Under the pieces are notes generated by a model. That model had not been told where the DNA came from. It saw only the letters and a program-made list of their open reading frames with translations, and did not search any database. Both the position numbers and the translations under genes were made by a program. Positions 2,518 to 44,413 of a stretch of DNA of 64,000 nucleotides are shown here, piece after piece. Source of the DNA: Ehretia macrophylla (Eukaryota > Streptophyta > Magnoliopsida > Boraginales > Ehretiaceae); contig CM075783.1 in NCBI GenBank assembly GCA_037974665.1, forward strand, positions 14,478,762 to 14,542,761, written 5' to 3'. Position 1 is the first letter of the stretch, and the number at the start of each line of letters is the position of its first letter.

Positions 2518-2678
2518 GTATCCTTTTTAAAGTGATTAATAGTTTGACTTATTGTCTTGATAGTTTATGTGGCTTGTATGTGTTTACTTGTGTTGCATAT
2601 CATATTGCACGTTGGCATGCTGCATCACCTCCCTCGCTGGGCAACTTTGTTGCTCACTCCTCATTTGAAATGTTTCAG
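2518..2678 (+). other. Intron-like cassette in LTR A1
   Basis: A T-rich 161-nt segment opening with GTATCCTTTTT, an exact match to the U12-type donor consensus RTATCCTTT, and closing with ATGTTTCAG. A hairpin GGGCAAC-TTT-GTTGCTC sits at 2639-2655, 23 nt before the final AG. The sequence before it is GC-rich and the sequence after it is purine-rich (GAGAAG then GAAGAAGAAGAAG), a contrast typical of plant exon/intron edges. It is followed by a short open frame (2681-2752) starting EAEVNPQL. No transcript evidence is available here. Confidence 0.45.
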
Positions 2679-3228
2679 GAGAAGCTGAGGTGAATCCCCA
2701 ACTGTTAGAAGTAGGAGAAGAAGAAGAAGTTCAAGTAGATCAGAATCCGTGATCTTGTGTGCTGAGGTGGATTTTATGTGCTTCTTGCGTGGAGTTCTTG
2801 TTATTAATGTATTTTGAGACTTTGGAGTCTTGTATATATATATGTCTAGTAGATGGGTACTAGGATGTTAAAGAAAGTTGTTGGATTGTAATAATGAATT
2901 CTAGACTTTAATTTCCCTTGCATGCTTGGAGTGTTTGTTAATCTTCATATGGAACTTAGAATTTTATTGTTTTTAATTACTTATGACTAAAACCAGCTTA
3001 TCTCGCATGCTTGTGTGCTTTAGTAGAATATTGTTGCTCCAAGGCTTGGATGGCCTTGTGATTGTGTTTTGGCTTTGGAGTTATTGTTGATAAGTTGTTG
3101 CTTTTAGTTCAGATGTCTTGAATGAATGTTTACAGGTAACAGTTTTGTCCTAGGTACAGAGGAGACTCTGTCCGAGTGACGGGTCCGAGCCTGACTATTA
3201 GCGTGGGGGTTGTGTTCGGGGCGTTACA

Positions 3229-4423: not shown

Positions 4424-7400
4424 TGTAACGCCTCGATCCCTCACGAGACCGGAGGCTCTAATAACCATGCTATTCTCAACCCAATACCAAACCCGGTCAT
4501 AAAATTTTAGGGAAAGATAGACAGAGTTTCCTCTGTACCGCGGACATTTTTCGAACCTGTAAATGCTCAAATTAGCCACAATATACTAAAACAAGCTTTT
4601 ATAATTAAAATTCAAAGGTTCAAGGTCATCCAAGCCAGGAGACAAACAACAACTCCAAATCACACATGCATGCACCCAACTTAACTTTTCATTAAACCTT
4701 TTTAACATGCCATCCTATGATAACATTAGAGCAATTTTAGAAGTTGAAATCAACACCTCTAAACATACACCCCCAAGCATGCAAGAACTAAAAGGAGAAT
4801 TAAAAGTTATTACAAGCCATAATATCTCAAAGCTAACATTACAACCAGCAGCTTTCGACTTGCAACTACAAGAATATACATAACCTTAAGGCCACAAAAT
4901 AGATCATGTTATAGCAATACAAGTACACCATGTAACAACAAGAAGGCAAATCCACCTTAGACAACAAACACATAACAACTAGGGCAAAGGCTCAGTCTGA
5001 ACTTTTTCCTCTTCCACTAGCACCTCAACTAGTTGGGGTTCACCCTCAGCACTTCCTAAAACATGTTTAGCGAGGTATGAGCAATCACAATTGCTCAGTG
5101 AGGGATAAGGTCTACCGAGGATGTGCAATGCAGCAACTTAACACAATTAATACAATAGATAAATAGTGAATAACAATTCTAATACCACATTTTAAAAGGA
5201 TACAATCGATAACCCTTATCACTCCAAATCTTCGATCCCCGATCCACGAACCACGATCTCGATCTCGATATGCCGGCATCCCTTACACCAATGGGTACTC
5301 CGGATGTACTCGATCCTACGACCCAACACCCCCTGGCAATCTCCTGACCAGGCGAGTGAGGGAATAGCAGACAGAGCTAAGGCAACCAACACTGGCAAGC
5401 CCGATGCCGCCCAGCGAGGCCATCGCATCCGCCGCAACAATGAGGTTGCGCAACCACGATGCAATGCAAGAATGATAACAATGACAATATAATTAGGAAA
5501 CACATTTAAGGACAAAAAGTAAGTTGTTCTCGCACCAAGTTACAATTTAGCAACAATAAGCATATATCAATTACGCAATTATACTAAACAATATACTCTT
5601 TTAGAAAGAAAATAAACTATGATGCACGTAAGGATGCAGGTCCCTCACCTCTACCGAGCTCCAAGATGTAAGTTTGAATCACATCATTTCCAGTCACCTT
5701 GAACCTATGAGCAAACATTACTTCAATTACTCTTTAACTACAACATTCATTAATTATTCAGCTAGGTTAGCTAACTTATAACTTCGCTTATTTAGCATAT
5801 ATACAATATCTATTAGAATTCTATTTTTAATAAAACACCACTTTTATATACTTTAACTTAACATATATTCCATATTTTCAATAGTCTACAAGTTAATTAA
5901 GAAGATAGTTCAAAAACTTAAAGGAGAATGATTCAACCAGCATGCTATAACTAGATATAAACCGAGCTAAAATTTAGTTTAACTAAGATCAACACATGAG
6001 CCTGCAGTTACTCATACTATTTCTCATTTATTTTAGTTAATAACTTGTACAAGAAACTAATTCACTCCACATACAATAAACTAGCCATTAACTCAACTCA
6101 AAGAATTTCTCCAAAGAATTTATAGATAATAAAGGTTAGGTTACTTTAATGTTCAAATGACACATTCATTCACAATGACACTACCCAGTCTTTTACTACT
6201 TTAATGAACTTCTAATTCATATTCTACTTTACTTACAATAGTTAGTAATATCTCTATGAAGATAGCCCAACATTAGCACATAGGGAAAGAAATGCATTTA
6301 TCAACTAATAGAAAAGTTAACTATCAACCATTTAATAACTAACATACTATTTTAGTAAAATAACTATACTTCAAGCTAAGATTCTAACATATCACTAGTA
6401 GTATTAACTTAAGTTAATTACATTTAACATATAATAGACAACTATCAACTTACAATTAACCTTACATGTAGTTTCAAAAAGCATTAAACACATTCTTCCA
6501 CATAGTTTACTTGACCTTTCTAAGTGGTCACTAGTTGCACATTGATAACAACAACTAATTCTAACAGTTAAATTGTTTAGCATATATAGAAACATTACCT
6601 ATGTCTAAAGGTGGTGACCATCACAACTCTACTAGCATTTCTCATTCACAGTCGAATAGAATAGCTTTCAATTTAAATTAACTTTACTAGCAATTAGATT
6701 TCAATTACAATTCATGAAAACAACATAACTATAAGAGCCCCATTACGTTATTAATCATCCAAGGACACTACACAATAAGGTCTTGATCGAATACATCCAA
6801 TTAGAACTGAATTATATCATTACTATAGCAAAATAACAACAAAATTCAGATTCTCGCGTAACAGGGCATTTCTGACACATCTCACCAAAATGATCATAAC
6901 TTGCTCTAGACAACTCCGATTAATGCACCGTAAAAAGCTGTAGAAACTAGACTCGTATGGCTTTCTAATGGTATATAATTCAACCCCTAATCCTTCTCCA
7001 ATTAATACAGTTTTAAGCTCGAAGTTGCCTCAATGCAGTTAGAATAGAAGTAGTTTATACAAGCAAATAAGCAGTTTTACAAAAGGGCATATACAAGATA
7101 TAATTAGAATTACATCAAAAGTTCCAAACCAACTTGAAACTACATTTAAACATTCAAGAAGTCATGCCAAGGTCTTAGAAGCGCGAGACAACCGAAATTG
7201 CACCTAAACCCCTTTGTTATTCAAGTTATTTCTCCTCCAAACCAAAGTTAATGATTCAAATTCAAAGGGAAACTCTACCAACCTTCTAACTAACCCTCAA
7301 GGAACCCTTTCAACCCTTTAACTCATTCAAATGCCCGCAATAACCCCGAAAGCCCCAAATTCCCTCTTATAGCTTTACACTACACCTACCTCATCCGGGC

Positions 7401-11341: not shown

Positions 11342-13774
11342 TGTCACGCCCCAACTCGACCCCATCTACGATCAGTCAGGACGCAACGGAATTTCGGCGG
11401 CATAACGACAGTAAACAGATTTCCGAGGTTCTAAACCAACCTCATTAAACATCATACATCCAGAAATTCCTCAATACAAACAACAACATACAACACAACC
11501 ATATTATACAATAAAACATCCTCGTTATACGCCTCCGTTCCAACATGACATACAATACCTCAACTTTATCATACATTTCAAAAGTAAGTTGAGACACAAC
11601 TACAATTTAACCATAGACAAAAGGAAGCCACTAAATATTAACATCATTTGGATCATCATCTTTTCAATAACTATTACACTAAGAACCGAAAAGCATATAA
11701 AAGTCCATTAAGCTAATATACATGACATTTAACAACATAGAATCATGGATAAGACTCAGGGACATATGACTCATCCACGAAAGGCACGTTTTCCACATTC
11801 TCCTCTTCAGGAGGCACGTACCCGTAATCTTGTGAAAGTACACCTGAAACATGCATTAATAGGGAGTGAGCTTATATACATAAGCCCAGTGAGGATCCGA
11901 TAGATCTCGACAGCATTCACTACGCTCCTTGGATTTAGTCCTTTGAGCAAGTAAACACACAACAACATAATAACATAAATAAAGCTATCATCACATAACT
12001 ATATGACCATTCAATAAGGATACTCTATTTGGTGTAGCTCCAAACGCCATCACGATCTCAACCGTTCTTCTTATAACTCCCCATTACTCACGCACCCGAG
12101 GTACCTCACTAGCCCCTTCCCTCCATGACATCTCCGTCATGCGAGCTGGGGGTAGCCTATGGCAGTCATGCCGTTATCAACCCGACAGCCCGACGCTGCC
12201 CGAGAGGTGGCACACACATACCAAGACTCCATATTCATCAATCATCATGCAAGCATAAATCAATCAATCAATTGGGAGATCAGCAACAAGAGTGCCCGAT
12301 TCCCGCATTCAATAATAATCAATCAATAACATCAATATAACATCAATATTAAATTAAACAACAAACAACGTAGTTAGATGACAAAGTAGGCCATCTAACC
12401 GGACATGCATAATATACATAATTAAACCCTAAATTACTCAACAACGACTCACCATTCATCACTCGAACACTACCCAACCATCTAAGGCCTCGTTCAAGAA
12501 ATTAAAGAATGACAACCTAAACTTCTAAAATTCATAACTTACAATCTACTAATCCAAACATTGCCAAATCAGTTCCTATCACTCACCCATTCAACCTACT
12601 ACATTAGCCCTCTCGGAAATCCACCATAACACCTCTAAATCATGCCCGATAACCCTAAAACCCTAAGATGTCATGGCTGGATTTTCCGGATTTTCACACA
12701 AACAATGTAATCGAAAATTCGGCATTACAACAGCGCTAACACGTAATTATCAAGTATTTAAAAATCGACGGCAATCGATTTCGAGCAACGCAACTCAATT
12801 AAATCAACTTTGAACATTTTAATCAAAATTAAATACCCGGAAAATAAAAATTATGCTATATCCGACAGAAATTCGTAGTATTAGTATATAATGATCCCTA
12901 GCATGCAAGGAGCAATAATCTAACATCAGATTACAATTCTAACGGTTCAATCTTCATTTATACGCAAAAACACAAAAATGACATTTTGAGATCTAGAATT
13001 TTTCTCTCACCTTAGATGCGATATAAGCCTAGGAATGCGTGCTATGCGTGCCCAACAAGCAGAATCCAAGTCGGTGCGAAGTTTCACGGACAAAAACTAG
13101 GTTTTTCTTTGAAAAATTGGATTGAAAGCTTGAGTTTTCTCTTCTCTTTTTCTCTCCTCAACCTCACGGCAATGTGTGTGTGTGGTGGTGTTTTTGTGTT
13201 GTGTGAGTGTGTGTTGAGGACATTAGCTTATAAGGTCAATTATTTAATTAAAGTCAAAGTTATTTTAATAGGTATTTTTGTGTTTTTAATGACTTTAATT
13301 GCATTTTAGTGATCACCAAGTTAAAATTAATTATGCAACCCCCAAGATATCTCAAGTGAGTTATTTTTAGGTGACAAGAAGTTTTACATTCAAAGAATTC
13401 CACCCGAGTCGGCTTAAAACTCGATTTTTGCAAAAGTCGGTGTAAAAACCCTAATAAATTCTTAAGCCGATTTTAAAACTGTTTTCATCAAACACAGGTC
13501 TATTAAAGTCCGTGGACTAGGTCTAGAAGGGTTAAAAAGACCAGTTTCAAAATTATAGCGGACGTGTTTCGAAAACACTATTCACTGAAAATCGACGATA
13601 AAATTTCTGACTCCGTTTTTGATGAAAATTTCATGAATGCACATTTAGCACGTATTAGGAGTATTGAAATCAAAATTATAACTTTCTAGGTCCTATAGCA
13701 CATAAACAGATCATATGCACGCAAAACGAGGTAAAGCACGTAAAACGAGATAAGCAAGAAAGTGGGGTTTCACA
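11342..13774 (-). repeat. B1 3' LTR (2433 bp)
   Basis: On the minus strand it begins TGTGAAACCCCAC (13774) and ends GGGGCGTGACA (11342). It contains the GC-rich block around 12110-12220 (minus-sense GGGCAGCGTCGGGCTGTCG), an inverted repeat CATGAC/GTCATG (12125-12142) and the intron-like cassette (12023-11844). The 71-codon plus-strand open frame seen in this region recurs in other B LTRs as antisense of the GC-rich block and is not called. Confidence 0.93.
11844..12023 (-). other. Intron-like cassette in B1 left LTR
   Basis: Minus-strand 180-nt T-rich segment opening GTATCCTTA and ending CATGTTTCAG. Hairpin GGGCTTAT-GTAT-ATAAGCTC at 11887-11868 lies 24 nt before the AG. The next two bases are GT, then an open frame ending in the tail DESYVPESYP and a stop at about 11752. 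That tail is nearly identical in every B LTR in the window. Confidence 0.42.
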
Positions 13775-16800: not shown

Positions 16801-18499
16801 TTGCTGAGATAACAAAACTCGTCTTAGCACCCCGGTTACCCGCTACCTCAACTACTGGCTGATCTGGCAAACGAAACTGTACTACCTTGGTTCTACAGTT
16901 CAACTGGGCATCATACTTAGAAAGCCAATCCATACCCAAGATAACATCATACCCCCGGATAGGAAATAAGATAAGGTCCGAAGGAAAATTATGCCCCTTA
17001 ACATGTATTAAACAATCCTTACATACTAAGCCAGTAACATACTTATCAGTCAAAGAGGTACTAATTTCAACCACATAAGGCAATCTTTCAGGTTGCAATT
17101 TAACACGTTGCACACAAGCAGGAGTAATGAAAGAATGCGTAGCACCAGAATCAATCAACACTTTAACAAGTTGATCAAGTATAAGAAAGTTACCTTCCAC
17201 AACTGCAGTCTCCTCAGGCATCTCCTCTAAGTCAACTGCATAAGCCCGAGCCTGAACCCGCTGCTGCTGTGGTACACTGCCCGTAGGCCTACCCTGGTAA
17301 CCCTGAGTCGCTGCCCGACCCTCAGTCCTCGCATATTTAGGGCAATCCTTCGCCCTATGATCGATGCTACCACAACCCAAACATGTTCCTGCCTTTACCC
17401 TGCAGTCGGACTCTACATGCCCTGGGCGCTTGCAGTAATTACACTGCGATGATGTGGCACTAACACTGCCCCTAGAATAACCAGAAGCTGAAGAAGCAGC
17501 TGATACAGCCTGCTGCTGAGGTCTCACCACACTAGGCCTATACTGACCCTGAGACTGGGCTGGCCTATACTGAGTCTGAACCTGATATGGCCTCTGTTGA
17601 AACTGAGGCTGATAGTAACTCTGCTGACTCTGTGGCCTATAAGAACCCTGCTGGGCAGGTGGCCTGTAGACAACCTGCTGTACTGGAGGCCTATATAAAA
17701 CCTGCTGGCCCTGCGGCTGATACGGCCTCTTACTCGGCTGACTGGAGACAATCTGATCCCCTTTCCTCTTCTCTAATCTAGAAGCTGCATCAAAAGCCTC
17801 AGTGAAAATATCATAACGATTCAGAGCCATCACATCCTGAATCTCGGGCCGCAACCCCAACATAAACCTGCGAGTCCTCCGCTCCTCGTCTACCACATAC
17901 TCCGGTGCATACCGGGACAATCGAGTAAATGTGGCCTCATATTGAGCCACTGTAGCATCTCCCTGGACCAAGGCTAGAAACTCGGCCTCTCTCCGTTCCC
18001 TGCAAATCCTCGGGACATACTTTGCTCGGAAAGCCATCAGAAAGGTACCCCAAACATAAGGAATACCCTGTGCCGCCCAGCTAGTCCTTACCGTGCGCCA
18101 CCACTCCTCTGCCTCGTCATCTAACAAATACACGGCAAAAGAGACTTTCTGCTCATCAGTATAGCCAAGTGGATCATAAATCTTCTCCAACTTGCTAATC
18201 CATACCTCCGCCTTCCTATCATCCGGCTCCCCCTGAAATCTCGGTGGGTGATATCCTAAAAAATCCTTCAGGGTACCACGCCCGTGGTTACCACCCTGAA
18301 TATTCAGAAGCTGAGCCTGCATAGCCTGATTCTGGGCAGCCTGCCCTGCTAATAACTGTGCCTGACTAGCCACTAACTCTGCAATCCGCTCCATAGCTGC
18401 TCCAAATCGGTCATCACCCCCGTCACGGCCCGGTGCCACGTTACTCGGAGTCTCATCAGTCAACTCAGACCTACCTCTGGTTCTCGGTCGACCGGCCAT
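13847..18499 (-). CDS. Gag-Pol polyprotein of chromovirus B1
   Basis: A single frame of 1550 codons plus stop. The start is taken at MAGRPRTRG because the B2 copy begins with the same words; an in-frame Met lies 21 codons upstream. Approximate domain order: gag capsid-like region (residues 75-250, with EEWWRTV); Q/Y/P-rich linker; two CCHC zinc knuckles near 351-386 ([14 protein letters not shown] and [14 protein letters not shown]); aspartic protease with DSGATHSF near 448; reverse transcriptase with [10 protein letters not shown] near 783; RNase H with DASKEGLGC near 932; integrase HHCC finger near 1140-1180, then the D,D,E core ([22 protein letters not shown]); a GPF/Y-type module (RFVGPFEI) near 1440; C-terminal chromodomain ([16 protein letters not shown]). 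Family knowledge: Gag packages RNA, Pol copies it, and the chromodomain steers integration to heterochromatin, which fits this setting. Confidence 0.93.
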
Positions 18500-18769
18500 T
18501 CTACTAATCAAAGAGTTAGCACAGTTATAGCACGTAGACAGGTTATAAACAACTATTAACACATAAATAACAAACTCATATAAAACACATAAACAAATTG
18601 ATCACATAATCACATAAGCACTTAAATCACATAATCACTTAATCAATTAATCATACCAATACATATTTCATTTTTCTTTCCTTTCATACATATTTCATGC
18701 TAAGACCATTACCCACATTCCGAGAATACCCCGGCTGACAACTAACATGAGCTCTGATACCACTTAAAC
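18500..18769 (-). other. B1 leader with tRNA-iMet primer-binding site
   Basis: The minus-strand TGGTATCAGAGC at 18762-18751 is complementary to the 3' end of initiator methionine tRNA and lies a few bases inside the 5' LTR. Further downstream the leader holds a degenerate run of words such as CATAATCACATAAG (plus strand, about 18560-18660). The same words are expanded in C and B4. Confidence 0.85.
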
Positions 18770-21204
18770 TGTCACGCCCCAACTCGACCCCACCTACGAT
18801 CAGTCAGGACGCAACGGAATTTCGGCGGCATAACGACAGTAAACAGATTTCCGAGGTTCTAAACCAACCTCATTAAACATCATACATCCAGAAATTCCTC
18901 AATACAAACAACAACATACAACACAACCATATTATACAATAAAACATCCTCGTTATACGCCTCCGTCCCAACATGACATACAATACCTCAACTTTATCAT
19001 ACATTTCAAAAGTAAGTTGAGACACAACTACAATTTAACCATAGACAAAAGGAAGCCACTAAATATTAACATCATTTGGATCATCATCTTTTCAATAACT
19101 ATTACACTAAGAACCGAAAAGCATATAAAAGTCCATTAAGCTAATATACATGACATTTAACAACATAGAATCATGGATAAGACTCAGGGACATATGACTC
19201 ATCCACGAAAGGCACGTTTTCCACATTCTCCTCTTCAGGAGGCACGTACCCGTAATCTTGTGAAAGTACACCTGAAACATGCATTAATAGAGAGTGAGCT
19301 TATATACATAAGCCCAGTGAGGATCCGATAGATCTCGACAGCATTCACTACGCTCCTTGGATTTAGTCCTTTGAGCAAGTAAACACACAACAACATAATA
19401 ACATAAATAAAGCTATCATCACATAACTATATGACCATTCAATAAGGATACTCTATTTGGTGTAGCTCCAAACGCCATCACGATCTCAACCGTTCTTCTT
19501 ATAACTCCCCATTACTCACGCACCCGAGGTACCTCACTAGCCCCTTCCCTCCATGACATCTCCGTCATGCGAGCTGGGGGTAGCCTATGGCAGTCATGCC
19601 GTTATCAACCCGACAGCCCGACGCTGCCCGAGAGGTGGCACACACATACCAAGACTCCATATTCATCAATCATCATGCAAGCATAAATCAATCAATCAAT
19701 TGGGAGATCAGCAACAAGAGTGCCCGATTCCCGCATTCAATAATAATCAATCAATAACATCAATATAATATCAATATTAAATTAAACAACAAACAACGTA
19801 GTTAGATGACAAAGTAGGCCATCTAACCGGACATGCATAACATACATAATTAAACCCTAAATTACTCAACAACGACTCACCATTCATCACTCGAACACTA
19901 CCCAACCATCTAAGGCCTCGTTCAAGAAATTAAAGAATGACAACCTAAACTTCTAAAATTCATAACTTACAATCTACTAATCCAAACATTGCCAAATCAG
20001 TTCCTATCACTCACCCATTCAACCTACTACATTAGCCCTCTCGGAAATCCACCATAACACCTCTAAATCATGCCCGATAACCCTAAAACCCTAAGATGTC
20101 ATGGCTGGATTTTCCGGATTTTCACACAAACAATGTAATCGAAAATTCGGCATTACAACAGCGCTAACACGTAATTATCAAGTATTTAGAAATCGACGGC
20201 AATCGATTTCGAGCAACGCAACTCAATTAAATCAACTTTGAACATTTTAATCAAAATTAAATACCCGGAAAATAAAAATTATGCTATATCTGACAGAAAT
20301 TCGTAGTATTAGTATATAATGATCCCTAGCATGCAAGGAGCAATAATCTAACATCAGATTACAATTCTAACGGTTCAATCTTCATTTATACGCAAAAACA
20401 CAAAAATGACATTTTGAGATCTAGAATTTTTCTCTCACCTTAGATGCGATATAAGCCTAGGAATGCGTGCTATGCGTGCCCAACAAGCAGAATCCAAGTC
20501 GGTGCGAAGTTTCACGGACAAAAACTAGGTTTTTCTTTGAAAAATTGGATTGAAAGCTTGAGTTTTCTCTTCTCTTTTTCTCTCCTCAACCTCACGGCAA
20601 TGTGTGTGTGTGTGGTGGTGTTTTTGTGTTGTGTGAGTGTGTGTTGAGGACATTAGCTTATAAGGTCAATTATTTAATTAAAGTCAAAGTTATTTTAATA
20701 GGTATTTTTGTGTTTTTAATGACTTTAATTGCATTTTAGTGATCACCAAGTTAAAATTAATTATGCAACCCCCAAGATATCTCAAGTGAGTTATTTTTAG
20801 GTGACAAGAAGTTTTACATTCAAAGAATTCCACCCGAGTCGGCTTAAAACTCGATTTTCGCAAAAGTCGGTGTAAAAACCCTAATAAATTCTTAAGCCGA
20901 TTTTAAAACCGTTTTCATCAAACACAGGTCTATTAAAGTCCGTGGACTAGGTCTAGAAGGGTTAAAAAGACCAGTTTCAAAATTATAGCGGACGTGTTTC
21001 GAAAACACTATTCACTAAAAATCGACGATAAAATTTCTGACTCCGTTTTTGATGAAAATTTCATGAATGCACATTTAGCACGTATTAGGAGTATTGAAAT
21101 CAAAATTATAACTTTCTAGGTCCTATAGCACATAAACAGATCATATGCACGCAAAACGAGGTAAAGCACGTAAAACGAGATAAGCAAGAAAGTGGGGTTT
21201 CACA
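18770..21204 (-). repeat. B1 5' LTR (2435 bp)
   Basis: Pairs with 11342-13774 at about 99.5% identity. It carries the same GC-rich block, and its intron-like cassette lies at 19451-19272 (180 nt). Expected to hold the promoter for B1; I could not fix a transcription start from sequence alone. Confidence 0.93.
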
Positions 21205-22554: not shown

Positions 22555-25061
22555 TGTGACACCCGAGATTTTAGCCGTGCATTCAATTACTGTTGCATCC
22601 CTTGTTTGCGCATTTCCTTCTGTGCAGTATTAACTGTCTTCTTAAATTACTATTCACTCCGTTTTTAACTTCATGCTATTAGCGAATTTGTATTTTTATT
22701 AAATCATATTAATTGTTAAAGTAGTGGGAAAAATGTGCATTTGAGCTAGAGGCGATAGGAGAGCTCGTTTAGAAAATGATTTTTGTAGTTGTATGAATAG
22801 TGTTACGTAACATAACTTAGGGAATGAATTAGCTAGCATTCATTTTACTATCTAGGCTCGTTTTAAGCTAACTAAGTGCATTTAGTGAACCATTTAAGCA
22901 AGCAACTTAGCCCCATTTAATATATAACTCACACAACACACACATTAGCTCATAACTTAGCAAAAAAAAAAAAAAGAGAGCATGCTGAAAACACTGTAGC
23001 AAATCCGAGAATTGCATAGGAGAAGGAAAAGATGAGATTTTGCTTCAACAACCTTGCATCTTGAGCTTCTAGATTGATCTTGGGAGGGTTTTGAGCAACC
23101 TAGGGACTTCTACAAGCTTCATCATCTTCAAAAATTGTGAGGGAGTTTCATTTTCTTGATTTTAAAGTTTATGTGCATATGTTAATTTTCTTGAATTGTC
23201 AATTATAGCTATATAACTTGTTATGAATGCTTCCTATGAGTTATTTAATGTCTCTAGAGCTAACTTTTGAGGGTTGATAACAAAGTTAATGGTTGAATGT
23301 TGAATTTGATCAAAGAGATGATGAATAGTGCCTAGAACTAGGGTTTTGAGAAAATTTGCTAATTGGCTTGAATTGATGCATCAATTAGGTGCTCTAGACC
23401 CTAGGGAAGTTAGTTGAAAAGCCACGTGAGGTTGAATCACTCGAATTTGAACTTAATTGCATAAATAGCTTACTTTAAAAAGGGGGCTTTACACGTAAAG
23501 CAATCCGGGCAAGTTTGGACACTGATTCGGGTATCCTTGAGCTAAGGAAGCACCTTTGGTGCTTTCGTTTCGCGAAAATGGGGTTCGGTTAGTATGGCTA
23601 TAGTTCAAACCCGTTCGGGGCCTTCCCGAACTTTTGCTTCAAAAATGAGTTTTAGTGACTTTAAAAGGTACCTTTGAGGTTAATTAAGGATATAGAATGA
23701 CTAGGATATAGTTTGGGAATCTTGAACCCTGCTTAGGAGAAAGAAAATTCGGTTAAAGAAAGGGAAAATGTAGTTTTTAGACATTTGAGTTGCATTTAGA
23801 ACTTGTTGAGGAATCTTAGTGCCTTACATTGAATATTTAGCATATAATTAAGCTATGTGAGTAGATTGTGGGATTTAATTGTGTTGATTGCTTCTTTTGG
23901 CATCTATTAGTTAATATCGTGCTTATATGAACTTTTATCGTGCATAAATGTGAGGGAGGCCTACTTTGTCGTCCCTCTTATGTGTTATGTGTTATATTGA
24001 TTGCTTGTGACTTGTATTGGGTTGCGCAACCTCTTTCGGACATGGTAGCGTCGAGAAACACGGGCGGCGTCGGGTTTGCCGTGCTCCCTCGACTACCATG
24101 GTGCCTATTCCCTTTCTCGCTGAGGCATACTCCACTACCCCAAAGGCGTGGTTCACCTGCTGGGCATAGACCTACCTCGGGAGAAAGGGTCGTAGGATCG
24201 GGATACATCCGGAGTATCCCAATTGTGGTGTTTGGGGTTTGCCGGCATATTCGTGATGCTCGTGGTTCGTGGCTCGTGAATGAAGACTTGGAAGTGGAAC
24301 CGTATCCTTTTTAAAAGTGGTTAATTGCTTGGTTTATTGTCTTGTTGGTTTATGTGGATTATATATGTTTTCTTGTGTTTGCATATCATATTGCACGTTG
24401 GCATGTTGCATCACCTCCCTCGCTGGGCAACATTGTTGCTCATTCCTCATTTAATATGTTTCAGGTGAAGCTGAGGTGAATCCTCAGCTAATAGAAGAAG
24501 AGGAAGAAGTGCTAGTTAAACAATTTCGGTGACTTCTTGTGTGATAAGGTTGTCTAAAATGAGAAGCTTGCGTGGAGTTGTTGTTGATTGCCTTTTTGTG
24601 ACCTTGGGGTCTTGAGTATAAATGGTGAATGTAATAATTTGTAATCTTGTATGTTGGATATAAAGTGGAATGACATGTAATAATCCATAGTAAACTTATT
24701 CTTTTGCATGCTTGTGTGATTAACAAACTTGGAAGTAGAACTTGGCTATTGTTGTATCTAACTACCTATAGTTAAAATTAGAAATGCTTTGCTTGCTTGT
24801 GTGTTATATGTAATTGTTGTTCTAAGGCTCGGATGGCCTTGTGATCGCGGGTGGCCCATAAAAATCTTGGAGGATTGGTTATAAGAGTTGCTGTTTGTGG
24901 ATCTAGCATCATGGGTGTCCTTGTGCAGGTACCAGTTTAGTCCTATAAACAGGGGAGACTCCGTCCATTTTCCCTTAAAATTTTGTGCCCGGGGTTTGGA
25001 ATTGGGTGAGAATAGCATGATAAATAGGAGTCCCGGTCTTGTGAGGGATCGGGGCATTACA
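22555..25061 (+). mobile_element. Solo LTR A2 (family A, 2507 bp)
   Basis: Starts TGTGACACCCGAG and ends GGGGCATTACA, flanked by ACCAA at 22550-22554 and 25062-25066. The uninterrupted sequence is visible in the right LTR of B2. No internal domain, so a solo LTR. It is a patchwork: the first ~480 bp resemble A3, the middle (about 23040-24000) is close to A1, and the last ~1.1 kb is close to A3 and C. An A-tract of about 15 lies near 22966, some 410 bp from the start. Confidence 0.9.
24302..24464 (+). other. Intron-like cassette in LTR A2
   Basis: A 163-nt segment opening GTATCCTTTTT and ending ATATGTTTCAG, with hairpin GGGCAAC-ATT-GTTGCTC at 24425-24441 ending 23 nt before the AG. Followed by an open frame (24467-24532) reading EAEVNPQLIEEEEEV and onward to a stop. 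Confidence 0.45.
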
Positions 25062-28500: not shown

Positions 28501-29692
28501 AATAGACTAAATATACACTTGACTTTTATTTATATTGTTATATGGCTTATTTATTGTAATCTACGTGCGAGGGCAACCTACTTTGTTGTCCCTCATTTAT
28601 GTGATTCTTGAATTATATTGTCATTGCTTGAATTATTGTGATCGAATATCGGGTTGCGCAACCTTTTCGGACATGGTAGTGTCGAGAAACACGGGCGGCG
28701 TCGGGCTTGCCGTGCTCCCTCGACTACCATGGTGCCTATTCCCTTTCTCGCTGAGGCATACTCCACTACCCTAGAGGCGTGGTTCACCTGCTGGGCATGG
28801 ACCTACCTCGGGAGAAAGGGTCGTAGGATCGGGATACATCCGGAGTATCCAAATTGTTGGTGTTTGGGGTTTGCCGGCATGTTCGTGAAGTTCGTGGTTC
28901 GTGGCTCGTGATTGAAGACTTGGAAGTGGAACTGTATCCTTTTAAAAGTGATTAATTGCTTGGCTTGTTATCTTGCTGGTCTACGTGGCTTATATATGTT
29001 TTCTTGTGTTTGCATATCATATTGCATGTTGGTATGTTGCATCACCTCCCTCGCTGGGCAACTTTGTTGCTCATTCCTCATTTAATATGTTTTAGGAGCA
29101 ATTGAGGTGAATCCCCAGCTGATAGAAGAAGAGAAGGAAGTGCTAGTTAAGCAATTTCCGTGACTTCTTGTGTGATAAGGTTGTCTAAAATGTGAAGCTT
29201 GCGTGTAGTTGTTGTTGGTTGCCTTTTTGAGACCTTGGGGCCTTGAGTATATTTGGTGAATGTAATAATTTGTAATCTTGTATATTGGATATGAAGTGGA
29301 ATGACATGTAAAAATCCATAGTAAACTTATCATTTTGCATGCTTGTGTGATTAACAAAACTTGGAAGTAGAACTTGGCTATTGTTGTATCTAACTACCTA
29401 TAGTTAAAATTAGAAATCCTTTGCTTGCTTGTATGTTATATGTAATTGTTGTTCCAAGGCTCGGATGGCCTTGTGATTGCTGGTGGCCCATAAAAATCTT
29501 GGAGGATTGGTTGTAAGAGTTGCGGTTTGTGGATCTAGCATCATAGATGTCTTTGTGCAGGTACCAGTTTAGTCCTATAAACAGGGGAGACTCTGTCCGT
29601 TTTCCCCTAAATTTCGTGCTCGGGGTTTAGATTTGGGTGAGAATAGCATGATAAATAGGAGTCTCGGTCTCGTGAGGGATCGGGGCGTTACA
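25512..29692 (+). repeat. Element C 5' LTR (4181 bp)
   Basis: The first ~3 kb is AT-rich and specific to C; a TA microsatellite is at about 26200-26216 (continuing to the AAAC-rich run near 26240). The last ~1.1 kb (from about 28560) is strongly similar to the ends of A2 and A3. Shared parts include the palindrome GGTTGCGCAACC (28652-28663), the GC-rich fold, and the cassette at 28934-29095. Donor-like GTGAGAGAG and GTGAGGGAG words occur near 26412 and 28400. Confidence 0.93.
28934..29095 (+). other. Intron-like cassette in C 5' LTR
   Basis: A 162-nt segment opening GTATCCTTTT and closing TATGTTTTAG, with hairpin GGGCAAC-TTT-GTTGCTC at 29056-29072. An open frame follows (29098-29163) with the core EVNPQLIEEEKEV. 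The 3' LTR repeats all of this at 33686-33847. Confidence 0.45.
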
Positions 29693-33200: not shown

Positions 33201-34443
33201 ATAAATTGTATAGTTTAATATGATTGCTTATAATTACGTGTACTTTGATATGAATAGACTAAATATACACTTGACTTTTATTTATATTGTTATATGGCTT
33301 ATTTATTGTAATCTATGTGCGAGGGAAACCTACTTTGTTGTCCCTCATTTATGTGATTCTTGAATTATATTATCATTGCTTGAATTATTGTGATCGAATA
33401 TCGGGTTGCGCAACCTTTTCGGACATGGTAGTGTCGAGAAACACGGGCGGCGTCGGGCTTGCCGTGCTCCCTCGACTACCATGGTGCCTATTCCCTTTCT
33501 CGCTGAGGCATACTCCACTACCCTAGAGGCGTGGTTCACCTGCTGGGCATGGACCTACCTCGGGAGAAAGGGTCGTAGGATTGGGATACATCCGGAGTAT
33601 CCAAATTGTTGGTGTTTGGGGTTTGCCGGCATGTTCGTGAAGTTCGTGGTTCGTGACTCGTGATTGAAGACTTGGAAGTGGAACCGTATCCTTTTAAAAG
33701 TGATTAATTGCTTGGTTTGTTATCTTGCTAGTCTACGTGGCTTATATATGTTTTCTTGTGTTTGCATATCATATTGCACATTGGTATGTTGCATCACCTC
33801 CCTCGCTGGGCAACTTTGTTGCTCATTCCTCATTTAATATGTTTCAGGAGCAGCTGAGGTGAATCCCCAGCTGATAGAAGAAGAGAAGGAAGTGCTAGTT
33901 AAGCAATTTCCGTGACTTCTTGTGTGATAAGGTTGTCTAAAATGTGAAGCTTGCGTGGAGTTGTTGTTGGTTGCCTTTTTGAGACCTTGGGGCCTTGAGT
34001 ATATTTGGTGAATGTAATAATTTGTAATCTTGTATATTGGATATGAAGTGGAATGACATGTAAAAATCCATAGTAAACTTATCATTTTGCATGCTTGTGT
34101 GATTAACAAAACTTGGAAGTAGAACTTGGCTATTGTTGTATCTAACTACCTATAGTTAAAATTAGAAATGCTTTGCTTGCTTGTATGTTATATGTAATTG
34201 TTGTTCCAAGGCTCGGATGGCCTTGTGATTGCTGGTGGCCCATAAAAATCTTGGAGGATTGGTTGTAAGAGTTGCGGTTTGTGGATCTAGCATCATAGAT
34301 GTTTTGTGCAGGTACCAGTTTAGTCCTATAAACAGGGGAGACTCTGTCCGTTTTCCCCTAAATTTCGTGCCCGGGGTTTGGATTTGGGTGGGAATAGCAT
34401 GATAAATAGGAGTCCCGGTCTCGTGAGGGATCGGGGCGTTACA
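30264..34443 (+). repeat. Element C 3' LTR (4180 bp)
   Basis: Direct repeat of 25512-29692 at about 98.7% identity. The microsatellite near 30950-30995 differs in length and composition from its partner, as expected for a fast-changing tract. The cassette at 33686-33847 ends in TTTCAG. Confidence 0.93.
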
Positions 34444-37342: not shown

Positions 37343-39855
37343 TGTGACGCCTGAGATTTTAGCCGTACATTCATTTACTGTTGCATCTATTGTTTGCGCA
37401 TTTCCTTCTGTGCTTTATAAACTGTCTTCTTTAGCTACTATTCATCCCGTTTTCAAACTATATTCTATTAGTGAATTAACATTTTTATTAAATCACATTA
37501 ATTGTTAGAGGAATGGCAAAAATGTGCAATTGAGCTAGAGGCGATAGGAGAGCTCGTTTAGAAAATGTGTTTAGTAGTTAAGTGAATAGTGTTACGTAAC
37601 AAACTTAGAGATTTAAATAACTAACATTACTTTTCACCTTAGGCTCGTTTTTAAGTTAATAACGCGCATTCTAGTGACCTTTTAAATACCCAAACTTGAC
37701 ATCACCTCAACTTAACCTTAGATAATTCACCTAAGCTCATTAAAACACAAAAAAAAAAAAAAGAGAACAAATGTGCAGGAATTACTGTAGCAGGGCCGAA
37801 AATACCCAAGGAGAAGGAAAAGTGGAGATTTTGCTTCAACAACCTTGCATCTTGAGCTCCTAGCTTGATCTTGGGAGGGTTTTGAGCATCCTAGGGCCTT
37901 CAACAAGCTTCCTTGTCTTCAAAAATTGTGAAGGAGATGCATTTTATTGTTTTTAAAGTTTATGTTCATATGTTGAATTTTCTTGATTTGTCAATTATAG
38001 CTATAAAACTTGTTATGAATGGTTATTATGAGTACATTAGAGCCTATAGAGTTAACTTTCATAGCTTGATAAGGAATTCCATGGTTGAATGTAGAGATTG
38101 AAGGAAGAAGACGATGAATAGTGCCTAGAATTAGGGTTTTGAGAAAAATTGCTAATTAGCTTAAATTGAGGCTTCAATCAGGTGCTCTAGATCCTAGTGA
38201 AGTTAGTTGAAAAGCCCCGTGAGGTTAAATCACTCGAAACCGAACTTAATTGCATAAATAGCCGACTTTAAAAAGAGGACTTTTTTCGTTGAGCAATCCG
38301 GGCAAGTTTGGGCATTGATTCGAGTATCCTTGAGCTAAGGAAGCACCTTTGGTGCTTTCGTTTCGCGGAAATGGGGTTCGGTTAGTATAGTTGTAGTTCA
38401 AACCCGTTCGGGGCCTTCCCGAACTCTTGTTTCTAAAATGAGTTTTTATGATCCTAAAAGGTGCCTTTGGGCTTAATTAAGAATATAGAAAGACTAGGAT
38501 ATGATTTGGAACTCTTGAACTATGCATAGGAGAAAGAAAACTCGGTTAAAGAAAGGGGAAAAAGTAGTTTTGGCTATATTTGATGCAATTGGCACTTGTA
38601 TTTAAGTTATCTTGTATTGTATTGAATATTTAGGATATAATTAAGCTATTTGAGTAGATTGTGGGAATTAATTGTGTTGATTGCTTCTTTTGGAATCTTT
38701 AAGCTAATCTCGTGCTTATGTGAACGTATTTCGTGCTTATTTGTGAGGGAGGCCTACTTTGTCGTCCCTCTTGTGTGTTATGTGATATTTTGATTGCTTG
38801 TGACTTCTCTCGGGGTTGCGCAACCTTTTCGGACATGGTAGCGTCGAGAAACACGGGCGGCGTCGGGCTTGCCGTGCTCCCTCGACTACCATGGTGCCTA
38901 TTCCCTTTCTCGCTGAGGCATACTCCACTACCCCAGAGGCGTGGTTCACCTGCTGGGCATGGACCTACCTCGGGAGAAAGGGTCGTAGGATCGGGATACA
39001 TCCGGAGTATCCCAATTGTTGGTGTTTGGGGTTTGCCGGCATGTTCGTGATGCTCGTGGTTCGTGGCTCGTGATCGAAGACTTGGAAGTGGAACCGTATC
39101 CTTTTTAAAAGTGATTAATTGCTTGGCTTATTGTCTTGTTGGTTTATGTGGCTTATATATGTTTTCTTGTGTTCGCATATCACATTGCACGTTGGCATGT
39201 TGCATCACCTCCCTCGCTGGGCAACATTGTTGCTCATTCCTCATTTAATATGTTTCAGGTGAAGCTGAGGTGAATCCTCAGCTGATAGAAGAAGAGGAAG
39301 AAGTGTTAGTTAAGCAATTTCGGTGACTTCTTGTGTGATAAGGTTGTCTAAAATGAGAAGCTTGCGTGGAGTTGTTGTTGATTGCCTTTTTGTGACCTTG
39401 GGGTCTTGAGTATAAATGGTGAATGTAATAATTTGTAATCTTGTATGTTGGATATAAAGTGGAATGACATGTAATAATCCATAGTAAACTTATTCTTTTG
39501 CATGCTTGTGTGATTAACAAACTTGGAAGTAGAACTTGGCTATTGTTGTATCTAACTACCTATAGTTAAAATTAGAAATGCTTTGTTTGCTTGTGTGTTA
39601 TATGTAATTGTTGTTCCAAGGCTCGGATGGCCTTCGTGATCGCGGGTGGCCCATAAAAATCTTGGAGGATTGGTTATAAGAGTTGTTGTTTGTGGATCTA
39701 GCATCATGGGTGTCTTTGTGCAGGTACCAGTTCAGTCCTATAAACAGGGGAGACTCCGTCCGTTTTTCCCTAAATTTTGTGCCCGGGGTTTGGAATTGGG
39801 TGAGAATAGCATGATAAATAGGAGTCTCGGTCTCGTGAGGGATCGGGGCGTTACA
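37343..39855 (+). mobile_element. Solo LTR A3 (family A, 2513 bp)
   Basis: TGTGACGCCTGAG...GGGGCGTTACA with GCAGT at 37338-37342 and 39856-39860. It is inserted antisense to B2 between its protease and RT regions. The last ~1.1 kb is nearly identical to A2; the middle differs from A2 by perhaps 15%. An A-tract of about 14-15 lies near 37750. Palindrome GGTTGCGCAACC is at 38814-38825. No internal domain. Confidence 0.9.
39096..39258 (+). other. Intron-like cassette in LTR A3
   Basis: A 163-nt segment opening GTATCCTTTTT and closing ATGTTTCAG, with hairpin GGGCAAC-ATT-GTTGCTC at 39219-39235. Followed by an open frame at 39261-39326 starting EAEVNPQLIEEEEEV. Confidence 0.45.
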
Positions 39856-41704
39856 GCAGTTACCCTGGAAACTCCTCGGGAAGTACATTAGGATATTCCT
39901 GAATAATAGGGACTTCCTCTAGCTATAGCTTATCAGATGGCTTGTTGATCAGATAAGCCAGATAACCCGAACACCCCTTACTCACCAACTTAACGGCTTT
40001 AGTTGCTGAAATAACAAAACTCGTCTTTGCACCCCGGTTCCCTACTACCTCAACTACTAGCTGATCTGGCAAACGAAACTGTACTACCTTGGTTCTACAG
40101 TTCAACTGGGCATCATACTTAGAAAGCCAATCCATACCCAAGATAACATCATACCCCTGGATAGGAAATAAAATATGGTCCGAAGGAAAATTATGCCCCT
40201 TAACATGTATTATACAATCCTTACATACTAAGCCAGTAACATACTTATCAGTCAAAGAGGTACTAATCTCAACCACATAAGGTAATCTTTCAGGTTGCAA
40301 ATTAACACGTTGCACACAAGCAGGAGTAATGAAAGAATGCGTGGCACCAGAATCAACCAACACTTTAACAAGTTGATCAAGTATAAGGAAGTTACCTTCC
40401 ACAACTGCAGTCTCCTCAAGCATCTCCTCTAAGTCAACTGCGTAGGCCCGAGCCTAAACCCACTGCTGCTGTTGAGGTGCACTGGCCGCAGGTCGGCCCT
40501 GATAACCCTGAGTCACTGTCCGACCCTCAGTCCTCGCATACCTAGGGCAATCCCTCGCCCTGTACTGATTGCTATCGCAACCCAAACACGTCCCTGCTTT
40601 TACCCTGTAGTCGGACTCCACATGCCCTGGGCGCTTGCAGTAATTACACTGCGATGATGTGGCACTAACACTGCCCCTGGAAGAACCAGAAGCTGAAGGA
40701 ACAGCTGAAACAGCCTGCTGTTGAGGTCTCACCATACTAGGCCTATACTGACCCTATGACTGGGCTGGCCTATACTGAGTCTGAACCTAATATGGCCCCT
40801 GCTGAAACTGAGGCCGATAGTAACTCTATTGACCCTGTGGCCTAAAAGAACCCTGCTGCACTGGTGGTATGAACCCAACCTGCTGTACGGGAGGCCTATA
40901 CGTGCCCTGCTGATACTGCAGCTGATGCGGCCTCTTGCTGGGCTGACTAGACATAAGCTGGTCCCCCTTTCTCTTTTCTAGTATGGAAGCTGCCTCAAAA
41001 GCCTCGGTGAAAATATCATACCGATTCAGTGCCATCACAACCTGAATCTCGGGCCTCAACCCCAGCATAAATCTGCGAGTCCTCCGCTCCTTGTCTGCCA
41101 CATACTTCGGTGCATACCGGGACAATCGAGTAAATGTGGCCTTATATTGAGCCACTGTAGCATCTCCCTAGACCAAGGCTAGAAACTCTGCCTCTCTCCG
41201 TTCCCTCGCAATCCTCGGGACATACTTTGCCCGGAAAGCCATCAGAAAGGTACCCCAAACATAAGGAATACCCTGTGCCGCCCAGCTAGTCCTTACCGTG
41301 CGCCACCACTCCTCTGCCTCGTCATCTAACAAGTACACGGCAAAAGAGACCCTCTGCTCATCAGTATAGCCAAGTGGATCATAAATCTTCTCCAACTTGC
41401 TAATCCATGCCTCCGTCTTCCTATCATCCGGCTCCCCCTGAAATCTCGGTGGATGATATCCTAAAAACTCCTTCAGGGTACCACGCCCGTGGTTACCACC
41501 CTGAATATTCAGTAGCTGAGCCTGCATAGCGTGATTCTGGGCAGCCTGCCCTACTAATAACTGTGCCTGACTAGCCACCAACTCTGCAATCCTCTCCATA
41601 GCTGCCCTTAATGGGTCATCACCCCCGTCACGGCCCGGGGCCGCGTTACCCGGAGTCTCATCAGTCATCTCAGGCCTACCTCTGGTTCTCGGTCGACCGG
41701 CCAT

Positions 41705-41980: not shown

Positions 41981-44413
41981 TGTCACGCCCCAACTCGACC
42001 CCTCCTATAATCAGTCAGGACGCAACGGAATTTTGACAGTATAATGACAGTAAATAGGATACCGAGGCTCTAAACCAACCTCAATAGACATCATACATCA
42101 ACTCCACAAACCATACAACAAACAACTCCTCAATAATAACAACATACATCATAACCATATTATACAATAAACATTCCTCGTTATACGCCTCCGTTCCAAC
42201 ATAATACATGAACCTTTAATATACATTACCAAGAACATGTTGAGCCAATCTAGCAACCTAATCATAAACAAAAGAAAGGCTACTAGGACAACATCAACTA
42301 ATTCATTAACTTAATAACATCTTATACATTATAAACTACAAAGCAGATAAAAGTCTACTAAGTTAATTTACAAGATAATAAAACATGTACGACATCACGG
42401 ATAAGACTCTGGAACATAGGACTCATCCACGTAAGGCACGTTTTCCACATTCTCCACTTCAGGAGGCACGTACCCGTAATCCTGCGAAAGTACACCTGTA
42501 TGCATGCAATAATAGAGAGTGAGCTTATATAAAATAAGCCCAGCGAAGATCCGATAGATCTCGAGCAAGGTCTACTAAACTCCTTAGAATAATCCTTTGA
42601 GTCAGTAGACACACAATAACAACAATAATATTATCATCACATAACTATATGACCATTCAATAAAGGACACTCTAGTTGGTGTAGCTTCAAACACCATCAC
42701 GATCATAACAGCCTTCTTATGACTCCCATAAACTCACGCACCCGGGGTACCCTCAATAACCTCGCCCTCCATGACACCTCCGTCATGCGAGCTGGAGGCA
42801 ATCTCTAATAGTCATGCCGTTATCAACCCGACATCACAATGTTGCCCGAGAGGTGGCACACACATACCAGAGACCCAGCAATAATAATAAACATCAATCA
42901 TTCACAGGAGGACAGTCTAGCAGAACTGTTTATCTCCCGGCATCAATCATTAATCAATAATCATATTATCATCATAATAATCATCAATAGTCAATTAAAC
43001 AACAAAATAACTAAGTTAGATGACAAAGTAGGCCATCCAACCGAACATGTATTAAACATACAATCAAACTCTAAATTACACATCAACAACTCACAATTCA
43101 ATCACACAACCCACACCCAATTAACTAAGGCTCAATTCAATAATTTAAAGAAAGATAACCTAACTTCAAAAATTCATAACCTACATTCTACTAATCCAAA
43201 CAACTCCAAATCAGTTTCTATCACTCACCCATTCAACCAACTACATTAGCCCCCTTGGAAAACCACCATAACACCTCCAAAGCATGCCCGATAACCCTAA
43301 GGTGTCAAGGCTGAATTTTCCGGATTTTCACCCAAACATCATAATCAAAAATTCGGCATTACAACGACGCTACCATGTAATTATCAAACATTTAGAAATT
43401 GACGGCAATCGATTCCGATCAACACAACACAATTTAATCAACATTGAACAAATTAATCAAATTTAAATACCCGGAAAATAAAAATTATGCTACAACCGAT
43501 AAAAACCCGTAGTAATACAACTAAATGATCCCTAGCATGCAAGGAGCAATAATCTATCATCAGATTAGAATTCTAACGGTTCAATTTTCATTTATACGCA
43601 AAAATGCAAAAGTCAACTTTTGAGATCTAGAATTTTTCTTTCACCTTTGATCCGAAGTAAAGCTAGGAATGCGTGCAATTGGTGCCCAACAAGCGGAATC
43701 CAGCCCGGTTTGAAAAGATTCGGACTTTAAATGAGTTTTCTAAGGCAAAATTACTTTGAAAATAAGTTGAATAAAATCTATTTTTTTCCTAAGCTTTCAC
43801 GGCTGCAAGGTGTGTGTAAATGTGGTGTTTTGCTTTGTTTCATTGTGTGTTGGTGATATATGCATGAAAGTCAACAAGTCAAATGAAAGTCAAAGTTGAA
43901 ACTTTAGTATTTTTAGTGTTTTCTTGACTTTAAATGCATTTTATTGATCACCAAAGTTCAAAACAAATATTCAACACCCAAGATAGCTCAAGTAGGTTAT
44001 TTTTAGGTGACAAGAAGTTTTACAATCGAATAATTTCACCCGAGTCGGCTTAAAACTCGATTTTCGTAAAAGTCGGTGTAAAAATCCTAATAAATTCCTA
44101 AGCCAATTTTAAAACCGTTTTCATCAAAAACAGGTCTATTAAAGTCCGTGGACTAGGTCTAGAAGGGTTAAAAAGACCAGTTTCAAAATTTTAGCGGACG
44201 TGTTTCGAAAACACTATTCACTAAAAATCGACGATAAAATTTCTGACTCCGTTTTTTATGAAAATTTCATGAATACACATTTAGCATGTATTAAGAGTAT
44301 TGATATCAAAATTATAACATTCTAGGCCCTATAGCACACATAAACAAGTCATATGCACTCAAAACAAGACAAAGCACGTAAATCAAGTTAAAGTAGATAA
44401 GTGGGGTTTCATA
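41981..44413 (-). repeat. B2 5' LTR (2433 bp)
   Basis: The uninterrupted partner of the split left LTR. It serves as the empty-site reference for the B1, A2 and C insertions. The cassette at 42670-42496 (175 nt) opens GTGTCCTTT, one base off the form in the other copies, and keeps the hairpin GGGCTTAT...ATAAGCTC. Confidence 0.93.

What the first reader, a model, noticed from the sequence alone, without database searches (positions are those of the whole stretch)
2518..2678. U12-type-like intron cassette conserved inside LTRs of four divergent families
All 13 LTR copies in the window carry a T-rich 148-180 nt segment in the same place. Positions: A1 2518-2678, A2 24302-24464, A3 39096-39258, C 28934-29095 and 33686-33847, D 5203-5056, B1 12023-11844 and 19451-19272, B2 42670-42496 (its other copy is split by B1), B3 53431-53258, B4 57811-57639 and 63009-62837. 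It opens with GTATCCTT(T/A) in all but the two B2 copies (GTGTCCTTT) and closes with TTTCAG, TTTTAG or a variant such as ATACAG or TTACAG, with YTRAY-like words 8-14 nt before it. Flanks differ widely between families B, D and A/C, so the match is unlikely to be background. GTATCCTTT is the consensus donor of minor (U12) introns. A spliced leader in a chromovirus LTR would be unusual as far as I know.
Basis: partly seen in the sequence, partly recalled or inferred. Interest (0 to 1): 0.75.

Follow-up and report, generated by a model that had tools for sequence, protein, structure and literature searches.

The report
Gag tail exon inside retrotransposon LTRs
A repeated DNA stretch that looked like a rare-type intron in plant mobile elements seems instead to end at a conserved splice site that joins a short coding exon in the element's long terminal repeat to the end of its capsid gene.

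Summary
In detail: all 13 LTR copies carry a 148-180 nt segment opening GTATCCTT (GTGTCCTT in two) and closing in YAG. Genome-wide, 8,688 places match an edge-plus-hairpin pattern; the reversed control matches 0. The reading as one U12 intron is only partly supported. The donor word is perfect, but the U12 branch site is no better than in shuffles. In samples picked without the segment, a U2-like RCTCAY sits 20-24 nt before the YAG in 38 of 40 LTRs.

The YAG edge looks like a real acceptor. Coding constraint starts there, in phase 1, and gives a mostly acidic tail with a stop, while the upstream LTR flank is mostly out of frame. The best partner is a phase-1 AAG|GTA donor at the Gag/protease boundary, whose free codon position is T in 3,033 of 3,054 sites although neighbouring codons vary.

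I propose a Gag-only mRNA, spliced from Gag into the 3' LTR, with an LTR-encoded tail: like BARE1 and EVADE, but with the last coding exon inside the LTR. RNA evidence is missing. The job of GTATCCTTT stays unexplained; a leader intron or a U11 site remains possible.

The parts
2518..2678 (+). A1 segment: GTATCCTTT ... TTTCAG (161 nt)
2638..2656 (+). A1 hairpin before the acceptor (position read; the fold was run on a near-identical A-type stem); its 3' arm runs into GCTCAC, the U2-like branch candidate
2679..2752 (+). A1 tail exon, phase 1 (2 nt + 23 codons + stop), EAEVNPQLLEVGEEEEVQVDQNP*
24302..24464 (+). A2 segment
24465..24532 (+). A2 tail exon
39096..39258 (+). A3 segment
39259..39326 (+). 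A3 tail exon
28934..29095 (+). C1 segment
29096..29163 (+). C1 tail exon
33686..33847 (+). C2 segment
33848..33915 (+). C2 tail exon
5056..5203 (-). D segment (148 nt)
4979..5055 (-). D tail exon
11844..12023 (-). B1 3' LTR segment (180 nt); its last base would be the last base of the proposed Gag-tail intron
11743..11843 (-). B1 3' LTR tail exon, 2 nt + VLSQDYGYVPPEEENVENVPFVDESYVPESYP*
19272..19451 (-). B1 5' LTR segment
19171..19271 (-). B1 5' LTR copy of the tail exon
17194..18499 (-). B1 gag part of the ORF, 1306 nt, ends in phase 1 at ...AVVE G|; Pfam Retrotrans_gag and zinc knuckle
17188..17197 (-). B1 candidate U2-type donor GAAG|GTAACT at the Gag/protease boundary; intron side would start at 17193
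40390..40399 (-). same donor word (GAAG|GTAACT) in a second place in the window
11342..13774 (-). B1 3' LTR
18770..21202 (-). B1 5' LTR (99.5% identical to the 3' LTR)
18751..18762 (-). B1 primer-binding site TGGTATCAGAGC (initiator Met tRNA type; label recalled)
20657..20663 (-). B1 TATA-like word TTATAAG about 220 nt upstream of the GTGAGAG word (by eye; inferred promoter)
20432..20438 (-). B1 U2-like donor word GTGAGAG after ATCTAAG; GTGAGRG found upstream in 21 of 24 representative copies
42496..42670 (-). B2 segment (GTGTCCTTT ... ATACAG)
42395..42495 (-). B2 tail exon
53258..53431 (-). B3 segment
53166..53257 (-). B3 tail exon
57639..57811 (-). B4 segment, first LTR
57547..57638 (-). B4 tail exon, first LTR
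62837..63009 (-). B4 segment, second LTR
62745..62836 (-). B4 tail exon, second LTR

Best explanation
The YAG edge is a U2-type splice acceptor (RCTCAY branch site at the 3' arm of a conserved hairpin, then mostly TTTCAG|G) that opens a terminal coding exon of about 20-32 codons lying inside the LTR. In the 3' LTR it is joined to a donor at the Gag/protease boundary (AAG|GTA, phase 1). This removes protease, RT, RNase H, integrase and the upstream part of the LTR, and gives a Gag-only mRNA whose Gag ends in an LTR-encoded, mostly acidic tail (VVE-G|tail-stop); unspliced RNA makes Gag-Pol and serves as genome. Shown from sequence: the edges, the conserved acceptor neighbourhood, coding constraint on the tail in B and X-type copies, the frozen codons at the Gag donor, and phase agreement. 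Inferred: that the two sites are joined, that Gag output is the purpose, and that unspliced RNA is the replication template. GTATCCTTT is left as a conserved donor-like word whose use (alternative leader donor in the 5' LTR, or U11 site) is open.
For: Coding constraint: codon comparison of B1 with three other B LTRs in the 120-nt window holding the tail gives 19 synonymous and 18 non-synonymous changes in the tail frame, against 1/36 and 5/32 in the other two forward frames. Minimum changes at codon positions 1/2/3: 8/17/28 in 16 distinct B tails and 18/18/37 in 28 distinct X tails. The tail frame opens 2 nt after the YAG and runs 21-32 codons to a stop in 12 of 12 whole window copies. Upstream LTR flank: stop within nine codons or at the joint in 63 of 93. 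Acceptor in samples picked without the segment: YAG|G in 40 of 40, RCTCAY 20-24 nt before it in 38 of 40. Donor: of five AG|GTR-like words in the B1 internal region, two are in phase 1, one of them at the Gag/protease boundary. Degenerate codon pattern for V-V-E-G-x-F: 3,054 sites (reversed control 11), of which 21 have A, C or G at the free third position of Gly. Among 30 distinct forms collected by hand from the 100 sites listed, GAA 30/30, GGT 30/30 and next base A 29/30, while the two Val third positions are G16/T7/A7 and A11/T9/G9/C1. The boundary word is in B, A and E elements. Hairpin: over all 28 distinct forms, 162 of 168 cells of the first six pairs are standard pairs, 22 of 28 forms keep all six, and pairs 6-8 change on both sides between families. 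Precedent for spliced Gag-only RNAs: PMC3735527 and PMC12786077 (passages).
Against: No RNA data. 25 of 93 extracted copies (Y type) have a different downstream stretch (GAVGGVAL...) that I did not test for coding. In 25 of 29 B copies an in-frame ATG lies 10-13 nt before the YAG, so the B tail could be translated without splicing; in D and part of E the unspliced frame is open for 28-54 codons, mostly without ATG. In the A scan some upstream LTR windows score higher than the tail, and in the mixed E scan too, so the coding test is clean only in B and in the pooled X set; in the B scan the first 120 nt of the LTR also give 17/20, with six stop-containing codons. Another acceptor for the Gag donor is possible: a TGTAG 302 nt downstream is in all five copies examined. 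The donor lacks +5G (GTACTT/GTATTT/GTAACT), so it is a weak U2 donor. Frozen GAA GGT could partly reflect shared ancestry. That the split codon is always Gly follows from the G after the YAG, which the extraction of the 93 required. Element C, with only about 566 nt between its repeats, keeps the tail without gag.
Confidence: 0.66

Rival explanations
1. One reading: a U12-type intron in the 5' leader, removed from the GTATCCTT edge to the YAG edge.
For: Donor: 90 of 93 extracted segments have GTATCCTT, 74 of them GTATCCTTT; the other three are one letter off (the extraction pattern itself asked for a near match), and 38 of 40 in samples picked without the word. Unconserved exon side, 41% T, AG|G end. 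A promoter-like TATA lies upstream (by eye), so the 5' LTR copy may be transcribed. Plants have U12 introns (PMC5932401, passage).
Against: No U12 branch site; U2-like branch word at 20-24 nt; mostly no frame continuity; no spliced-out copies in four searches.
Confidence: 0.2
2. The same acceptor in the 5' LTR serves leader splicing from a U2 donor GTGAGRG about 1-1.2 kb upstream (443-532 nt in C, D and L050), removing a GC-rich structured region; the Gag-tail use is the same acceptor in the 3' LTR. Compatible with the best explanation.
For: GTGAGRG is found upstream in 21 of 24 representative copies (A, B, C, D, E, L049, L050) with a variable exon side, and about 200 nt after a TATA-like word in A, B, E and L049 (by eye).
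Against: Not found in L057, B2 and L023 (L023 has little upstream sequence); A copies have a second GTGAGRG near -353. Transcription start and RNA not tested; a 7-letter word is short; leader splicing does not explain coding constraint on the tail.
Confidence: 0.35
3. GTATCCTTT is a U11/U12-binding element that helps or restrains a neighbouring U2 acceptor rather than a donor that is cut (compare the U11-binding splicing enhancer of U11-48K and 65K genes, recalled, not read here).
For: Perfect U12-donor word without a U12 branch site.
Against: The recalled enhancers lie downstream of the acceptor they help; here the word lies upstream. No binding data.
Confidence: 0.15
4. No splicing: a conserved RNA structure plus a small ORF, kept for another reason.
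For: Hairpin with pairs changed on both sides; in-frame ATG in 25 of 29 B copies.
Against: No ATG in the tail frame before the first upstream stop in the A, C, D, L049 and L057 copies; frozen donor codons in gag.
Confidence: 0.12

Closest known systems
Spliced Gag-only RNAs of BARE1 (barley) and EVADE (Arabidopsis), Ty1/copia (PMC3735527 and PMC12786077, passages)
   Same: Splicing near the end of gag, short new C-terminus and stop after the joint, full-length RNA kept for other uses; DNA copies of spliced BARE1 RNA could not be amplified from genomic DNA
   Different: BARE1 loses only 104 nt and EVADE the protease domain; here the acceptor and last coding exon lie in the LTR, about 5.3 kb from the donor in B1
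Drosophila copia Gag RNA (passage in PMC3735527)
   Same: A large pol stretch (2.9 kb) is removed to favour Gag
   Different: Other superfamily and host; whether copia has an LTR tail exon was not checked
CRR splicing in rice centromeric retrotransposons (one sentence in PMC3735527)
   Same: Spliced RNA in a plant Gypsy element
   [quoted passage not shown] original not read
[quoted passage not shown]
   Same: Partial splicing in plant Ty3/gypsy
   Different: There splicing allows the whole polyprotein; here it would remove pol
C. elegans Cer1 protein from spliced mRNA (passage in PMC12786077)
   Same: A spliced isoform encodes a distinct element protein
   Different: There it is needed for export of unspliced RNA; exon layout not checked
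U12-type introns (PMC3584512, PMC5932401, passages)
   Same: Donor word
   Different: No U12 branch site, U2-like branch spacing

Membership tests
U12-type intron | 5' splice site RTATCCTTT | tested here: met
   90 of 93 extracted segments have GTATCCTT (74 with T next), three are one letter off; 38 of 40 in samples chosen without the word
U12-type intron | branch site TTCCTTRAY | tested here: not met
   Mean best match 6.2/9 against 5.7 (sd 0.79) shuffled; 0 of 40 distinct tails reach 8
U12-type intron | branch site 11-13 nt from the 3' splice site | tested here: inconclusive
   Some copies have CTAAC about 11-12 nt out (most Y type, L049, L057), X-type E copies none; the conserved word is at 20-24 nt
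U12-type intron | excision by the minor spliceosome | not testable with these tools
   No RNA data
Spliced Gag-only mRNA of an LTR retrotransposon | conserved splice donor at the end of gag | tested here: met
   3,033 of 3,054 sites keep GGT; GAA GGT in 30 of 30 distinct forms from the 100 listed. Donor-like by sequence; use not shown
Spliced Gag-only mRNA of an LTR retrotransposon | downstream acceptor in matching phase followed by a short coding stretch and a stop | tested here: met
   Phase 1 and stop in 12 of 12 whole window copies; coding signal; weaker in A and E scans
Spliced Gag-only mRNA of an LTR retrotransposon | spliced RNA observed | not testable with these tools
   No transcript data held
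Spliced Gag-only mRNA of an LTR retrotransposon | spliced RNA not found as genomic copies | not tested
   Searched only for the LTR segment joint (0 hits), not for Gag|tail
Tekay chromovirus (Ty3/gypsy) | gag, RT, RNase H, integrase in Ty3/gypsy order | tested here: met
   Pfam hits on three pieces of B1; the rve integrase core is at 32.4 bits, just under its cut-off of 32.6, SH3_Tf2-1 at 89.8
Tekay chromovirus (Ty3/gypsy) | chromodomain after integrase | tested here: inconclusive
   PF00385 E 0.023, 15.1 bits against a cut-off of 25.1
Tekay chromovirus (Ty3/gypsy) | clade by RT phylogeny | not tested

The most novel reading that the evidence does not exclude
The LTRs of this lineage are coding: each holds the last exon of a Gag isoform, read only in the 3' copy. 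The same acceptor, in the 5' copy, is served by two other donors, one of them a perfect U12/U11 word kept in thousands of copies. The element would thus draw the minor spliceosome, or its U11 snRNP alone, into choosing between genome RNA and Gag mRNA, with structured, packaging-like hairpins inside the removed part so that only unspliced RNA is copied.
Probability: 0.17. Interest if true: 0.85.

Novelty: new variant of a known kind. Interest (0 to 1): 0.62.

Why it matters
If right, an LTR is under protein-coding selection, which is not how LTRs are usually read, and thousands of copies in one plant genome carry a hidden alternative end of Gag. It would extend the splicing solution to the Gag/Pol ratio problem (described for Ty1/copia elements and a few others) to an abundant Ty3/gypsy lineage in a new layout, and it gives an exact joint to look for in public RNA reads. 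The unexplained U12-donor word, kept without a U12 branch site, is a testable puzzle about use of the minor spliceosome by mobile elements.

Tried and rejected
Considered and set aside: (1) the segment as an intron between two coding LTR exons: the upstream flank is out of frame in most copies and shows no coding signal in the B scan. (2) Exon a (before GTGAGRG) as the coding partner: by eye no ATG in B1 and a stop just before the joint. (3) A captured host gene: in the B LTR the tail is the clearest coding stretch; in A and E some upstream windows score high too, so this is weaker there. (4) In-frame ATG of B copies as the real start: absent near the edge in the A, C and D copies and in L049 and L057. 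(5) U12 branch site: no clear excess over shuffles. (6) IMG/VR contigs for relatives, one 34-letter hairpin pattern: 0. (7) Palindromic-loop hairpin upstream as a dimer site: folds, but with modest z-scores; left as a lead.

Mended on checking: an early pair count used 19 of the 28 distinct hairpins and left out nine, among them several that break pairs (98.2%); with all 28 it is 162 of 168 cells. The 93 extracted segments were picked by patterns asking for a near-match donor, a hairpin frame, part of the branch word and YAG|G; window copy B3 did not match them, so the 40-copy samples are the fairer counts.

Literature: ten searches answered. Among the titles and abstract starts shown, none reported an LTR-encoded Gag tail or a U12 intron in an LTR. 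Passages of eight papers were seen, none in full. PMC7730604 (passages) reports spliced Gag isoforms in two sunflower Ty1/copia elements and no Tekay in its expressed set. The library holds open-licence papers only, so absence is weak.

Full report
What is there. The window lies in a 1.58-Gb genome of 20 contigs, a plant by its elements (inference), in arrays of a roughly 375-bp satellite with nested LTR retrotransposons. The segments are 148-180 nt; over the 93 extracted they are 41% T.

Is it more than chance. One pair of edges at this spacing turns up in about 2% of shuffled LTR pieces (538 of 24,000), so a single copy proves little. Recurrence does: 8,688 genome places match GTATCCTT plus the downstream hairpin frame, against 0 for the reversed pattern. 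In two samples picked without the segment it stands in 20 of 20 (B-like) and 18 of 20 (E-like) LTRs; the two exceptions differ by one letter.

Testing the U12 reading. The donor is perfect and the exon side free. The branch site is not there: 0 of 40 distinct tails match TTCCTTRAY at 8 or more of 9 positions, and the mean, 6.2, is close to shuffles, 5.7 (sd 0.79). A U2-like RCTCAY lies 20-24 nt before the YAG in 38 of 40 LTRs of the two samples and in 91 of 93 extracted segments, where the extraction favoured it. It follows the 3' arm of a hairpin whose first six pairs hold in 162 of 168 cells over all 28 distinct forms, with inner pairs changed on both sides between families. Before these counts three regex hits were dropped: two with GAG in place of YAG (L038, L050) and one spurious. 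Window copy B3 did not match the extraction.

No intron-less copies. Joint patterns for A, B and two E types gave 0 hits each. DNA copies of spliced BARE1 RNA could not be amplified from genomic DNA either (PMC3735527, passage).

The downstream flank is coding. From two bases after the YAG, 12 of 12 whole window copies read 21-32 codons, mostly acidic, to a stop. Changes at codon positions 1/2/3 are 8/17/28 (B, 16 distinct) and 18/18/37 (X, 28 distinct); two truncated tails were dropped and the 25 Y-type copies were not tested. In the B LTR the tail is the clearest coding stretch. In the A and E scans it ranks high but other windows rank higher. The upstream LTR flank mostly does not continue the frame: a stop lies within nine codons or at the joint in 63 of 93. 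Read upstream without splicing, the frame meets a stop after four codons in A, C, L049, L057 and most Y copies, is open but mostly without ATG in D and part of E, and meets an in-frame ATG 10-13 nt up in 25 of 29 B copies.

The partner donor. The coding sequence upstream in the element is gag-pol. In B1 a phase-1 donor-like GAAG|GTAACT sits where Gag ends and protease begins. A degenerate codon pattern for that peptide finds 3,054 sites; only 21 have A, C or G where any base would code Gly. Among the 100 sites listed, 30 distinct words all read GAA GGT while the two neighbouring Val codons use three and four different third letters. B, A and E elements have it (one E copy has TAAGGT). This is how a splice donor inside coding sequence looks. 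Joined to the LTR acceptor, the split codon is Gly, as G|GN must be. In B1 the intron would run from 17193 to 11844.

How it would work. Full-length RNA gives Gag-Pol and the genome. A share is spliced from the Gag end into the 3' LTR, losing all Pol, and gives Gag with a new tail. This would answer the need for more Gag than Pol, as in BARE1 and EVADE (PMC3735527, PMC12786077, passages), with the last exon moved into the LTR. The joint, the RNA and the protein are not shown. A rival acceptor 302 nt into protease is in all five copies examined.

What remains odd. GTATCCTTT is about as well kept as the acceptor, yet has no U12 branch partner. A U2-like GTGAGRG lies upstream in 21 of 24 representative copies, about 200 nt after a TATA-like word in four families by eye, which suggests a spliced leader in which GTATCCTTT could be a second donor to the same acceptor. 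I rate a true U12 leader intron at 0.2.

Verdict. Observation confirmed; interpretation partly supported; best reading 0.66; a new variant of a known kind.

Noticed in passing
window 262-616, 3107-4566, 8273-10853, 44266 to at least 51701: Arrays of a roughly 375-bp satellite among the LTR elements; could be a centromeric or other heterochromatic array.
   Followed up: no
window 25514-29699 and 30266-34450: Element C: two 4.2-kb repeats 98.5% identical with only about 566 nt between them, so probably a non-autonomous element with very long LTRs; segment copies about 3.5 kb apart in short runs elsewhere suggest more.
   Followed up: partly
L030, L031, L039, L057 and similar, about 100-140 nt upstream of GTATCCTT; A1 near 2417-2437: Hairpin such as GGGGTAC-ATCCGGA-GTACACCC with a self-complementary loop (TCCGGA; TTCGAA in L057), like a kissing-loop dimer site; z-scores modest.
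   Followed up: partly
L029, L039, L002 (part of it in L049), -300 to -240 from the donor: 12-nt palindrome GGTTGCGCAACC at the start of a GC-rich stretch upstream of the segment.
   Followed up: no
L002, L039, L049 and window A1, about +618 to +654 from the donor: TTTACAG|G or TTTGCAG|G shortly before a hairpin-forming stretch (strong folds) near the LTR end: a possible further acceptor; AG|GTGG-like words follow the tail exon.
   Followed up: no
L055 and L056 against L040 and L041: D-type upstream flank and segment joined to Y-type downstream sequence right after the YAG: family mosaics switching at or near the acceptor.
   Followed up: no
L002 and L039 at about -770: A second GTATCCTT word inside the upstream LTR of an A and an E copy.
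   Followed up: no
window 13847-13849 (-): B1, although its LTRs are 99.5% identical, has an in-frame stop near the C-terminal end of pol.
   Followed up: no
L037: A copy lacking about 20 nt between the hairpin and the YAG, with a short TCA repeat at the break.
   Followed up: no
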